A DNA stretch of 41,589 bases from Candidatus Kuenenbacteria bacterium (lineage in GTDB: Bacteria > Patescibacteriota > Patescibacteriia > UBA2196 > GWA2-42-15). This document shows, one piece after another, positions 1-25,378 of the stretch. Within the stretch, counting starts at the first letter, position 1; the number at the start of each line of letters is the position of its first letter. A model generated the notes under the pieces. The model did not search any database and was not told the origin of the DNA. It worked only from the letters and a program-made list of their open reading frames with translations. The stretch covers positions 1 through 41,589 of the forward strand of contig JAAZOM010000005.1 in assembly GCA_012797775.1 (NCBI GenBank), written 5' to 3'. The translations under genes and the position numbers were made by a program.

Positions 1-2702
1 GTCGCGGCATTAATGGTCGCGCCAGTATTCACGGTTAGGTTATCAATCTTTGAGGTGGTGGAATTCAACATGGCGATTCGGGCATCACCACTAAAGATAT
101 ATGAGCCAGTGCCTGTGTCTCCGGTGTTGAGAAGATAATTGTCACTCACAGTTAAAGCGCCAGCTGAGATTGAGAGTCCCGTCCCGGTCAGATCAGTCAG
201 GTAATCAGAACCAACACCGAGTGTCGTGGTATAGAGATTGGTGGAGGTCGCTTGGGTTACTACTAGGGTAGCCAGATCTAGTGTTGTGGTGGCATTGAGA
301 GCGTCATTAAAATAATTATTGAAATTGGCTGTCGCTAGATAATTTGCTGGGGTAAATCCATTTAAAGTCGTTGTCGCATTATAATTCCTCTCCCAATTAC
401 TATCATAAGCTGTCCAGGTAGTTGTGTTATTCCAAAAATATTGTTCACTAGATGTTGCCCAGCCACTTGTTGATACTCCGGTCAATCTACTGCCATCACC
501 ATAAATATACCCGCCCACGGTCAGATCACCACCCACATATTGGGCTCCGGTCGTGGTGGCATTGCCATCCACTCGGAAATTCGCCGCAATCGTTGATGAC
601 CCCGTCACAAAAATCCCAGCCGTGCTGGAGGTTGGCGTGAGAGTATTGGTAAAAATATTTTCCCATGGTCCGCCACTGCCACTCGTCGGCCAAGCACTCT
701 GGCAGTCGCCATTGATACAAATCTGGTTTGCCGCTAGGCTTCCAGTTGTTGTCGCATAGGCCACTGTCAGATAATCAACATTTGTCGTTGTCGCATTGAT
801 CGTGCTAAATGTTGCCGGACCAGAAAAAGATGACCCCCCGGCAAAGGTCACTCCCCCGCCAAAACTCGCCGCGCCAGTCGTCGTCAGCGTCCCGCCGATG
901 GTTGTATTTCTACCCACGGTCAAGTCTTCGCCAATCGAGGCCATTTTAACGACCAAAGTCTCTCCGCTCAAATTCATCGCGGAAAGACTGGTAGCATTGT
1001 GTGGATCAATTGTCGGCTGAGCAATGATGTTTGGGTAGACATAGGTTGTCCCTCCTCCTGCTCCTGATCCATTACTTGTCCCCGGTGGACCTTCTTTGCC
1101 CGGTGGACCAGTTGGGCCGACCGGTCCCGTTGGCCCTATCGGACCTTGAGGCCCAGGCACCTGCCTGTAAACTATTTCTCTTTGGATTATTTGCGTCTTA
1201 GTCGGGGCCTTCGTTATTGTTCCCTTCCCCCCAATCACTAGAACTTCTTTTTGTCTCTCTATTCCTCCGAGCCGACATTGACCATTGTCATACACCACCA
1301 ACTTTGTTTCTTCCTTCTTCGGGAAAATTATATTTCTTATTTCCCTACCAAATATTTCAACCCTATTTGTCGTCTTGTCCCACCAATTGGCTGCTATCTT
1401 TGTCCAGCTGACAGTCGCCTCGCCGGCCACCAATCCCTCTGTCGCAACTTTTTGCTCTTTTCTCTCTCCCTGCTTTGCATAAAAATCAGCCGCCAAAGCC
1501 AACACTCTGTCTGTACCAATACTTGCTTTGTTTATTGTTGACCCTGCCTTGCTTTCCACTGCTGCGGCCACAGTCATTACTTCTCTTCTAGCGCTATTAT
1601 AACCACGTACAATCTGTCCGCTGTCTGCTAATCGAGCCAAATAACTATCCATCTCGTTGCTCGCTCTGACCAATATTCTGTCCTGCCAATTATTAAATTC
1701 TGTATTTACCCCTCTCCACCAAATCACCAGATTCTGCCCCTGATCTTTTGCCATGTTTTCTACTCCCTCATATTTGTTCGCCACGATCGGCCCGTTCACC
1801 TGACACAAACCAATAAAAGCCAAAAATATTATTGTCACTGTGCTAAAAGCAAACGCTCTAAATTTATAACCAAAACTCAATCCGCCCCAATGCTTTGCTG
1901 CCACCATTGGTGTTCTCGTGATACTCACTGCCTCTACCCTTGCCGCCCATATCAGTCCCTGAACTTTATCTTCAATAAATTCTTTCAGCCAGCTGATCAC
2001 ATCTACCCTTACCTCAATATCTTTTTGTACCAGTTCTTTTATATTCTCAAGCACCGCCCTATTTAGACCTGCTTGCATAGGACGACACTCCTCTGGTATT
2101 GACCCTTCCACCTCTTGGGTTTCTTTATCTCCCTGTTTAGAATATAAATTATTTTCTGTAACTTTTCGCTCCAGCTCACTTATGATGCTTTGTATGATCG
2201 CATGCCTATCAAAAATCTTGGCTGTTTTGGCTACTCTCAATCCACCAACAATTTTTGCCAAAAATTCAATTCCGACTTTTTTGATGCCGAGCAATTTTTC
2301 CATTATTCTTTTGTCGGCCGCTGGTCGTCTTATTAGTTTTGTCGCCACCTCTTCTTTTTGCGTGATTGCTTTTTTTATTTCCCTACTTGCTGTTGTTTTC
2401 TGTTCCGCCAAAATCACTACTGGAGTTTCTTTTTTTACCGGCTCGCTTGTTTTTTGTTTTGCCAAAAGTGAATGCTCGCTGATATATTCATCCAGCCATT
2501 CACTGGTGGTGTACCAGTTGCGTCCAAATTTCGTGGCTTTCAATTCTCCCTTTCTTGCTAGCAACGAGAGATACTCCTGCGAATACTCACAGCGCTTTTC
2601 CATTTCTGACAACAAAAAATAGCCACGGGGAATTTCCCGGCTATTTTTATAACCACCTTGGGTAGTAATAATATTATATTTATTATTATCCTTATAAGCC
2701 AT
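1..2702 (-). CDS. HTH / transmembrane / collagen-like fibre protein, C-terminus cut by window edge
   Basis: At least 900 codons are open from ATG 2702 to the left window edge, so the 3' end is missing. Order of parts: an excisionase/MerR-like winged-helix segment (about residues 25-70, with the motif KFGRNWYTTSEWLDEYI), a charged linker, one hydrophobic segment (about 279-301, FSTVTIIFLAFIGL), an alpha-helical extracellular-type stretch, eight G-P-X type collagen triplets (about 515-541), then a Thr/Asn/Gly-rich repetitive region full of ATTT tetrapeptides and a DGSRLTGV motif typical of trimeric fibre beta-repeats. Known family feature: CPR genomes often carry such HTH plus fibre fusions. 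Inferred role: membrane-anchored cell-surface fibre or adhesin whose cytoplasmic domain may bind DNA or protein. An internal Met at residue 34 would cut the HTH, so the ATG at 2702 is preferred. No Shine-Dalgarno; the leader is A-rich. Confidence 0.85.
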   Translation of the reverse strand, partial: MAYKDNNKYNIITTQGGYKNSREIPRGYFLLSEMEKRCEYSQEYLSLLARKGELKATKFGRNWYTTSEWLDEYISEHSLLAKQKTSEPVKKETPVVILAEQKTTASREIKKAITQKEEVATKLIRRPAADKRIMEKLLGIKKVGIEFLAKIVGGLRVAKTAKIFDRHAIIQSIISELERKVTENNLYSKQGDKETQEVEGSIPEECRPMQAGLNRAVLENIKELVQKDIEVRVDVISWLKEFIEDKVQGLIWAARVEAVSITRTPMVAAKHWGGLSFGYKFRAFAFSTVTIIFLAFIGLCQVNGPIVANKYEGVENMAKDQGQNLVIWWRGVNTEFNNWQDRILVRASNEMDSYLARLADSGQIVRGYNSARREVMTVAAAVESKAGSTINKASIGTDRVLALAADFYAKQGERKEQKVATEGLVAGEATVSWTKIAANWWDKTTNRVEIFGREIRNIIFPKKEETKLVVYDNGQCRLGGIERQKEVLVIGGKGTITKAPTKTQIIQREIVYRQVPGPQGPIGPTGPVGPTGPPGKEGPPGTSNGSGAGGGTTYVYPNIIAQPTIDPHNATSLSAMNLSGETLVVKMASIGEDLTVGRNTTIGGTLTTTGAASFGGGVTFAGGSSFSGPATFSTINATTTNVDYLTVAYATTTGSLAANQICINGDCQSAWPTSGSGGPWENIFTNTLTPTSSTAGIFVTGSSTIAANFRVDGNATTTGAQYVGGDLTVGGYIYGDGSRLTGVSTSGWATSSEQYFWNNTTTWTAYDSNWERNYNATTTLNGFTPANYLATANFNNYFNDALNATTTLDLATLVVTQATSTNLYTTTLGVGSDYLTDLTGTGLSISAGALTVSDNYLLNTGDTGTGSYIFSGDARIAMLNSTTSKIDNLTVNTGATINAA

Positions 2703-2975: not shown

Positions 2976-3004
2976 TTGATTTTTAGTTCATTTCGTGCTA
3001 TACT
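2976..3004 (+). promoter_or_regulatory. Sigma70-type promoter for a candidate small RNA
   Basis: TTGATT (2976-2981), a 17-base spacer, and TATACT (2999-3004) form a good housekeeping promoter reading rightwards. Transcription would start near 3011. No protein gene follows; the structured block at 3031-3140 does. Confidence 0.5.
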
Positions 3005-3010
3005 TACTCT

Positions 3011-3140
3011 GTAGCTAATTTTCAGCTAATAAAAAACAACCCCAAAATTAAAGCGAGTTACTACTCGACTTTAAAAAAATATAAAATCCATAGCCTAATA
3101 GAATTTATATTTTAATAACCCTTCCCGGGGTTGTTTTTTT
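3011..3140 (+). ncRNA. Candidate structured small RNA
   Basis: Following the promoter at 2976-3004, an outer 13-bp stem joins AAAAAACAACCCC (3031-3043) to GGGGTTGTTTTTT (3127-3139). Inside it sit two further helices: TTAAAGCGAGT (3048-3058) with ACTCG plus CTTTAA (3063-3074, one bulged A), and AAAATATAAA (3076-3085) with TTTATATTTT (3104-3113). This gives a three-way-junction-like fold of about 130 nt ending in a T-run. An alternative short hairpin at its 3' end acts as terminator. I do not recognise it as 6S, SRP or RNase P RNA. The helices are AT-rich, so conservation data would be decisive. Confidence 0.4.
3117..3140 (+). terminator. Intrinsic terminator, alternative to the outer stem of the candidate RNA
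   Basis: AACCC (3117-3121) can pair with GGGTT (3128-3132) around a short loop, followed by GTTTTTTT. The same GGGGTT segment also pairs with CAACCCC at 3037-3043, so two mutually exclusive folds exist, as in attenuators. Confidence 0.45.
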
Positions 3141-3186: not shown

Positions 3187-3225
3187 GCCCTATAATGATT
3201 GCCTATAATCATTATAGGGCTTTTT
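3187..3225 (+). terminator. Strong rho-independent terminator
   Basis: A perfect 14-bp stem, GCCCTATAATGATT (3187-3200) with its complement at 3207-3220, a 6-base loop and then TTTTT. It reads rightwards and would back up the terminator at 3117-3140. Its right half resembles the promoter region at 3426-3454. Confidence 0.6.
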
Positions 3226-3313: not shown

Positions 3314-3394
3314 TTAATATCCTTTACCACTTACTGATGACTTTTTCGGTAAATCTCTCCTATCCGATATTCTTTTTCCCTTATTTTTGAGCAA
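3314..3394 (-). CDS. Possible 26-residue leader peptide behind the operator-flanked promoter
   Basis: A TTG start at 3394 is preceded by a strong AAGGAG (3400-3405) at 5-base spacing, which is notable because most genes here lack a Shine-Dalgarno. The 26-residue product is very basic (MLKNKGKRISDRRDLPKKSS...) and ends at TAA 3314. It lies directly downstream of the promoter at 3426-3454 and contains a further TATCCGATA site. Too short to judge by codon use; it may be a leader peptide, a tiny regulator, or chance. Confidence 0.22.
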   Translation of the reverse strand: MLKNKGKRISDRRDLPKKSSVSGKGY

Positions 3395-3675
3395 TCTATC
3401 TCCTTTTTTACTATCCGATACTATCATTATAGCGCATTTTTTGCCTTTTGTCAAAGTATCGGATAGCCATTTTTTGATATTTTTTCAATCACCCTTACCC
3501 GCTAGAAACATCTTGGGGCTGAAAATGAAACAATGCCCCTCCGGATAACCCTTAACAGCCATCCGACTAATCACTCTGCATCTATTACTACTAGGTTTTT
3601 CCACTGACCAATAATCCTTTGTTGATCACTCTTACTCTATACCCCAAGAACCTCTACCCATACTCCTATCCGATA
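3361..3675. repeat. Four copies of a palindromic TATC-S-GATA site
   Basis: The palindrome TATC-C-GATA occurs at 3361-3369, 3412-3420 and 3667-3675, and as its complement TATC-G-GATA at 3457-3465. All four share a C or G immediately outside (CTATCCGATA). Copies 2 and 3 bracket the minus-strand promoter at 3426-3454. Four copies of a 9-base odd palindrome in 315 bases is far above chance and looks like an operator set for a dimeric repressor. I cannot name the regulator. Confidence 0.55.
3426..3454 (-). promoter_or_regulatory. Near-consensus sigma70 promoter flanked by operators
   Basis: On the minus strand TTGACA (3449-3454), a 17-base spacer and TATAAT (3426-3431) match consensus exactly. 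One TATC-S-GATA palindrome sits 2 bases upstream of the -35 (3457-3465), the other covers the expected start site (3412-3420). This is the classic geometry of a repressed promoter. The transcript would run left towards the 26-codon ORF at 3314-3394 and possibly the fibre gene at 2702. Confidence 0.65.
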
Positions 3676-24980: not shown

Positions 24981-25378
24981 GGGGATGTTCATAATCGACT
25001 AGAAAATCCCTTAATAATTGCTAATCAAGTTGTTAATCTTGTAAAAATTATCACACTCCAATAAGTGTCAAAAATATTACGGGCGCTGTGAGGGAAAAAG
25101 TCAGCAATTTTATTGCTTCCTTATCACCAAACTTCGCTCCTGCATTAGCTTAAATACTATTGCCATCCCCCTTGTAAACCTGTGCCAAGATCGGGATGTT
25201 ATATATCCGGGTGTAGGTTCTCTTTGCCGCTTGAGCCAAGAAGCCGAATAAATTTCAAGCTATGGTTTAAAAATTTTTGCCTATTTCTATTTTTAAATCA
25301 AAACTTAAACAGGCTATATTAGTAGAAAATTATTAATGGCTTTCTAAAACGCGGGTGCAATACCCGCCATCTCCACCA
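24981..25378 (+). ncRNA. ssrA: Transfer-messenger RNA (tmRNA)
   Basis: Rescues ribosomes stalled on broken mRNA by acting as tRNA and then mRNA. The 5' GGGGATG (24981-24987) pairs with CATCTCC (25368-25374) as an acceptor stem with one G-U, and the molecule ends in ACCA at 25378. The T-arm is GCGGG/CCCGC (25351-25355 with 25363-25367) with a 7-base loop TGCAATA, which keeps T54, C56 and A58 but has G at 55. The 5' side has ATCGAC as in the D-loop-like part. Length 398 nt, normal. A tag reading frame lies inside (25100-25153). The 3' end is only 12 bases from infC. Confidence 0.95.
25100..25153 (+). other. tmRNA proteolysis-tag reading frame
   Basis: Within ssrA, an open frame ends SNFIASLSPNFAPALA before TAA (25151-25153). 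The hydrophobic ALA ending is typical of tags recognised by ClpXP-type proteases, though it has one terminal Ala rather than two. The resume codon is not certain; GTC at 25100 or AGC at 25103 are candidates. Confidence 0.75.

What the first reader, a model, noticed from the sequence alone, without database searches (positions are those of the whole stretch)
3400..3470. Consensus promoter bracketed by two palindromic operators
Minus-strand TTGACA-N17-TATAAT lies between TATC-G-GATA (3457-3465) and TATC-C-GATA (3412-3420). Two more copies at 3361 and 3667. This is the geometry of a tightly repressed promoter, but no repressor gene is seen in the window and I do not recognise the site as a known LexA, ArsR, MarR or HrcA operator. 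What it drives is unclear: a basic 26-codon ORF with a real AAGGAG, possibly the fibre gene 700 bases on.
Basis: partly seen in the sequence, partly recalled or inferred. Interest (0 to 1): 0.62.

Follow-up and report, generated by a model that had tools for sequence, protein, structure and literature searches.

The report
Surface fibre carrying its own repressor
In a tiny uncultured bacterium, the repeated palindrome around one promoter is very probably the binding site of a DNA-reading domain fused to the inner end of the cell-surface fibre which that promoter makes, so the fibre appears to regulate its own gene from the membrane.

Summary
TTGACA-N17-TATAAT lies on the minus strand at 3454-3426, with TATCSGATA at 3361, 3412, 3457 and 3667. 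These four are the only intergenic copies in the 930-kb genome (closest named relatives: Candidatus Kuenenbacteria, Patescibacteria). The cluster and promoter are conserved upstream of the same gene in the family.

The fibre gene (2702 to <1, minus strand) starts with a winged HTH of excisionase/MerR type, followed by one predicted TM helix and a collagen/tail-fibre-like ectodomain. Across 115 genes with this HTH, TATCSGATA lies upstream of 50 of 68 whose predicted recognition helix reads SQEYLS. It lies upstream of none of 27 reading SAKYLN; 24 of those carry a different operator, AATATGGT...ACCATATT, found in 0 of the other 88. The pairing holds on two unrelated architectures (membrane fibres and Fic enzymes), so the HTH-operator link is strong. 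A search with the HTH profile finds only this gene in the genome.

Inferred: membrane-tethered negative autoregulation. The 26-codon ORF is probably not a gene. A family-specific small RNA gene on the opposite strand lies between promoter and fibre gene. No binding or expression was measured.

The parts
3426..3454 (-). Consensus sigma-70-type promoter TTGACA-N17-TATAAT; predicted start about 3419
   Evidence: conserved block in family genomes
3457..3465 (.). Operator A, TATCGGATA, abutting the upstream side of the -35
   Evidence: equivalent position in G001, G002, G004, G005, G012
3412..3420 (.). Operator B, TATCCGATA, over the predicted transcription start
   Evidence: same position in G001 and G002
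3361..3369 (.). Operator C, TATCCGATA, about 50 bp downstream of the start
   Evidence: retained in G001, G002, and as core ATCSGAT in G003-G005
3667..3675 (.). Operator D, distal TATCCGATA; a distal copy also in G001, a second promoter module in G002, G004, G005
1..2702 (-). Fibre gene (900 aa, truncated by the contig end): wHTH - one predicted TM - collagen-like / tail-fibre-like ectodomain
2472..2624 (-). Winged helix-turn-helix domain (residues 27-77), recognition helix [10 protein letters not shown]
   Evidence: A5 profile E 1.1e-29; AF2 pLDDT 86; Foldseek to excisionase/MerR folds; Pfam HTH_17 below cut-off
1797..1853 (-). Predicted single transmembrane helix (residues 284-302), basic N-terminal flank
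   Evidence: hydropathy only; same layout in most N-terminal-HTH homologues
1071..1154 (-). Collagen-like Gly-X-Y segment starting the fibre ectodomain
   Evidence: (weak here, stronger in G001, G004, G005)
2976..3140 (+). Candidate small RNA gene antisense to the fibre leader: promoter TTGATT-N17-TATACT (2976-3004) and a structured element (about 3030-3140) closed by a GGGGTTG-TTTTTTT terminator, invariant loop ATCCATAGCC
   Evidence: (z -7.1, minus strand)

Best explanation
The palindromes are the operator of the fibre protein's own N-terminal winged HTH. The promoter at 3426-3454 drives leftward transcription, through a roughly 700-nt leader, into the gene for a single-pass surface fibre (HTH inside, collagen/tail-fibre-like part outside). 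The cytoplasmic HTH binds TATCSGATA copies just upstream of the -35, over the start site and about 50 bp downstream, and blocks initiation. The fibre's membrane abundance thus limits its own synthesis, and a change in the ectodomain (assembly, contact) could relieve or strengthen this. Shown here: the sites, the conserved promoter, the conserved downstream gene, the HTH fold prediction, and the tight co-occurrence of this HTH subfamily with this operator, including an operator switch that follows a recognition-helix switch. Inferred: direct binding, repression rather than activation, membrane topology, any sensing.
For: (1) TATCSGATA ranks first of 768 palindromes in the 500 nt upstream of genes with this HTH: 30 of 54 loci, the next AAAATTTT 11; shuffles mean 0.24, max 2. 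(2) In loci not used to form the idea: 16 of 18 (shuffles mean 0.15, max 2). (3) Operator switch: SQEYLS-type HTHs 50 of 68 genes, 38 of 49 clusters at 75% identity; SAKYLN-type 0 of 27, of which 24 have AATATGGT...ACCATATT at 29-30 nt, found in 0 of 88 others. Within Fic proteins alone 5/8 against 0/26, p = 2e-4. (4) The same pair occurs on unrelated proteins: HTH-TM-fibres and Fic enzymes of archaea, Spirochaetes and WOR-1. (5) The HTH profile finds only the fibre gene in this genome at E<=10. (6) The specificity residues lie on predicted helix alpha2. (7) Site centres pile up at -40 to -60 and 0 to +30 relative to predicted starts. (8) Precedent: CccR, a Fic protein with C-terminal HTH, represses its own promoter through boxes near -35/-10 (PMC9755527).
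Against: No binding, expression or localisation data. About a quarter of SQEYLS-type genes lack an exact site nearby. A terminator-like element and an opposite-strand RNA gene separate promoter and ORF, so how much transcript reaches the fibre gene is unknown. A 9-bp palindrome is short for a conventional wHTH dimer. Another, unrelated 94-aa HTH_17 protein exists in the genome. The TM helix rests on hydropathy alone. Start sites are predicted, and related genomes are not fully independent.
Confidence: 0.75

Rival explanations
1. The HTH activates rather than represses: bound just upstream of the -35 it recruits RNA polymerase when the fibre senses contact, as CadC/ToxR do at their targets.
For: A site abuts the -35 here and in several homologues; membrane-tethered wHTH activators of the ToxR/CadC type exist.
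Against: The promoter is already consensus and should not need activation; many homologues have sites only over or downstream of the predicted start (for example L093-L095, L072, L075, L129); CccR is a repressor.
Confidence: 0.12
2. The operator is read by a separate soluble regulator, and the HTH of the fibre has another role or none.
For: A second, unrelated HTH_17 protein (94 aa) exists in the genome; some SQEYLS-type genes lack sites.
Against: The site follows this HTH across unrelated protein architectures and many families and switches with its recognition helix; the 94-aa protein has an unrelated recognition helix.
Confidence: 0.08
3. Anchoring rather than regulation: the fibre's HTH ties its own gene, and so the chromosome, to the membrane (RacA-like) or to the site of fibre synthesis.
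For: The fold search lists RacA among MerR-type neighbours; a membrane-anchored DNA binder with sites at one place would physically tether it.
Against: Sites sit at promoter positions, and soluble Fic proteins with the same HTH also carry them at their promoters, where tethering makes no sense.
Confidence: 0.05

Closest known systems
Transmembrane transcription regulators (ToxR, CadC type; survey PMC10269533)
   Same: One polypeptide with cytoplasmic HTH, usually one TM helix, and an extracytoplasmic part
   Different: HTH here is excisionase/MerR-like; the ectodomain is a large collagen/tail-fibre-like structural protein, and the evident target is its own promoter
CccR of Yersinia pseudotuberculosis (Fic + C-terminal HTH autorepressor, PMC9755527)
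   Same: HTH fused to an effector, autorepression through boxes near -35 and -10; homologues of our HTH also sit at the C-terminus of Fic proteins
   Different: No Fic domain here; membrane protein; operator TATCSGATA instead of AGATAATCAT-N26-ATGATAATCT
HTH_17 / excisionase (Xis, RdfS) and MerR-type winged helices
   Same: Predicted fold and order of elements; weak HMM matches
   Different: Below Pfam cut-off in the members scanned; fused to TM and fibre; associated with a short 9-bp palindrome

Membership tests
Transmembrane transcription regulators (TTR) | DNA-binding domain and at least one TM region in one protein | tested here: met
   HTH at residues 27-77 and a hydrophobic segment 284-302; TM by hydropathy only
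Transmembrane transcription regulators (TTR) | Acts on transcription from the membrane | not testable with these tools
   no localisation or expression data
ToxR/CadC family | OmpR-type wHTH (Trans_reg_C) | tested here: not met
   No Trans_reg_C among Pfam matches; only weak HTH_17 and AbiEi_4; fold search favours Xis/MerR types
HTH_17 (PF12728) | Score over the curated cut-off of 27 bits | tested here: not met
   12-17 bits for the window protein, at most 25.8 in the homologues scanned
MerR/Xis-type winged helix fold | alpha-turn-alpha followed by a beta wing and a third helix | tested here: met
   AF2 pLDDT 86; RdfS TM 0.64, prob 0.99, CarH, BmrR, RacA among hits, all E above 0.1
Fic-HTH autorepressors (CccR-like) | Fic domain | tested here: not met
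   No PF02661 in the window protein, although homologues of its HTH occur on Fic proteins
Known Rfam RNA families (leader element) | Score over the gathering threshold | tested here: not met

The most novel reading that the evidence does not exclude
A widespread Patescibacteria system in which giant surface fibres are themselves one-component regulators: an excisionase-like HTH on the cytoplasmic end reads a shared operator code (TATCSGATA) at the fibre's own promoter and couples the state of the fibre outside (assembly, possibly host contact) to its expression, with an antisense RNA as a second layer in the Kuenenbacteria family.
Probability: 0.4. Interest if true: 0.85.

Novelty: new variant of a known kind. 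Interest (0 to 1): 0.72.

Why it matters
How Patescibacteria control the surface proteins thought to contact their hosts is largely unknown, and nearly all are uncultured. A DNA-binding domain built into the fibre, matched here to its operator by sequence alone, gives a direct hypothesis that can be tested in E. coli with a small protein domain and a short DNA. The recognition-helix/operator switch also gives the start of a specificity code for an HTH subfamily shared by bacterial fibres and archaeal and bacterial Fic enzymes.

Tried and rejected
26-codon ORF as a leader peptide: RBS and TTG start missing in G001; in G002 the frame is broken. A genome-wide regulon: the other five sites in the genome are inside ORFs. 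The loose 11-mer with two mismatches: not enriched. A known RNA family for the leader element: no Rfam match. A ribo-attenuator on the fibre strand as the element's main identity: less likely, because an A-U to G.U change in the closing stem keeps pairing only on the opposite strand, which also has its own conserved promoter; not excluded. RNAalifold on the MAFFT alignment gave no covariation because the inner helices misalign. PDB sequence search with the HTH profile: nothing meaningful. Literature search for the string TATCGGATA: only incidental hits in the 20 papers listed.

Full report
Setting. The window is contig C5 of a 930-kb genome in 31 contigs. So it is a Patescibacterium with a small genome.

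Observation. The promoter and the four palindromes are as stated. Nine TATCSGATA occur in the genome; five are inside ORFs, so the four here are the only intergenic ones. Chance for four in 315 bp is about 3e-13. The exact promoter string occurs seven times in the genome.

Conservation. A DNA search of relatives aligned the block with the same-genus genome (86% over 116 bp) and another genus of the family (77% over 125 bp); the promoter alone matched more widely. In family genomes G001, G003, G004 and G005 the block lies upstream of the same gene; in G002 the contig ends before it. G002, G004 and G005 have two such modules in tandem. The gene encodes a large protein with a conserved N-terminal block [43 protein letters not shown], one hydrophobic segment at residues 284-302, and collagen/tail-fibre-like sequence.

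The HTH. Its profile finds one gene in this genome. AlphaFold2 on 67 homologues gives a compact winged helix, with helix alpha2 covering [10 protein letters not shown]. The nearest folds are excisionase RdfS and MerR-type domains, with weak E-values as expected for 63 residues.

Linking HTH and operator. Homologues were collected from 84,980 species genomes (39 loci), from relatives and from 381 genomes of the class, plus 40 fetched regions. In the first set TATCSGATA was the top palindrome of all 768 tested. In loci added later it was present for 16 of 18 SQEYLS-type genes. Overall 50 of 68 such genes have it, 38 of 49 clusters at 75% identity, against 0 of 27 SAKYLN-type genes. Those instead have AATATGGT...ACCATATT at 29-30 nt in 24 of 27 cases, seen in 0 of 88 others. 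Because the HTH occurs at the N-terminus of membrane fibres and at the C-terminus of Fic enzymes, shared ancestry of one promoter cannot explain the pairing.

Geometry. Against the best predicted promoter in each locus, site centres pile up at -40 to -60 and 0 to +30. In the window they lie at about -42, +3 and +54. In three Moranbacteria loci (L093-L095) two abutting sites lie just after the start. This favours blocking of initiation. CccR, a Fic protein with a C-terminal HTH, is an experimentally shown autorepressor with boxes near -35 and -10 (PMC9755527). Membrane-tethered regulators are widespread (PMC10269533). I found no report of one built into a surface fibre, but the paper library covers open-licence papers only.

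Leader and antisense RNA. Between promoter and ORF lies a structured element (z -7.1 folded on the fibre strand). It is found once per genome at this place in all six family genomes; matches elsewhere are weak. It has its own conserved promoter on the opposite strand (TTGATT-N17-TATACT here). In G003-G005 one stem pair changes from A-U to G.U on the plus strand, which would be A.C on the minus strand. I read it as a small RNA gene antisense to the fibre leader; its effect is unknown.

Limits. Everything is comparative. Binding, sign of regulation, topology and start site are unmeasured. The fibre gene is truncated by the contig end. The first-stage remark that no repressor gene is in the window is answered: the candidate regulator is the fibre gene itself.

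Noticed in passing
window 2976-3140, plus strand; L171-L176: Family-specific structured RNA with own promoter and invariant ATCCATAGCC loop, antisense to the fibre leader; no Rfam match.
   Followed up: partly
L131-L137, L139-L141, L145-L150, L153, L154, L156, L157, L160, L169, L048, L049, L051, upstream of HTH-bearing (mostly Fic) genes: SAKYLN-type HTH genes carry a different conserved operator, AATATGGT-N21-ACCATATT, overlapping the apparent -10; a second HTH-operator pair.
   Followed up: partly
L093, L094, L095: Moranbacteria minimal HTH-TM proteins (about 150 aa) with two abutting TATCSGATA sites directly followed by an intrinsic terminator before the ORF.
   Followed up: no
L054, L116, L111, L115, L055: Some proteins carry two HTH copies in tandem.
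   Followed up: no
window 3187-3220: 14-bp perfect inverted repeat GCCCTATAATGATT/AATCATTATAGGGC in the leader; half of it resembles the promoter's -10 region (3423-3440).
   Followed up: no
window 24981-25378, plus strand: tmRNA found by Rfam but missed by ARAGORN.
   Followed up: no
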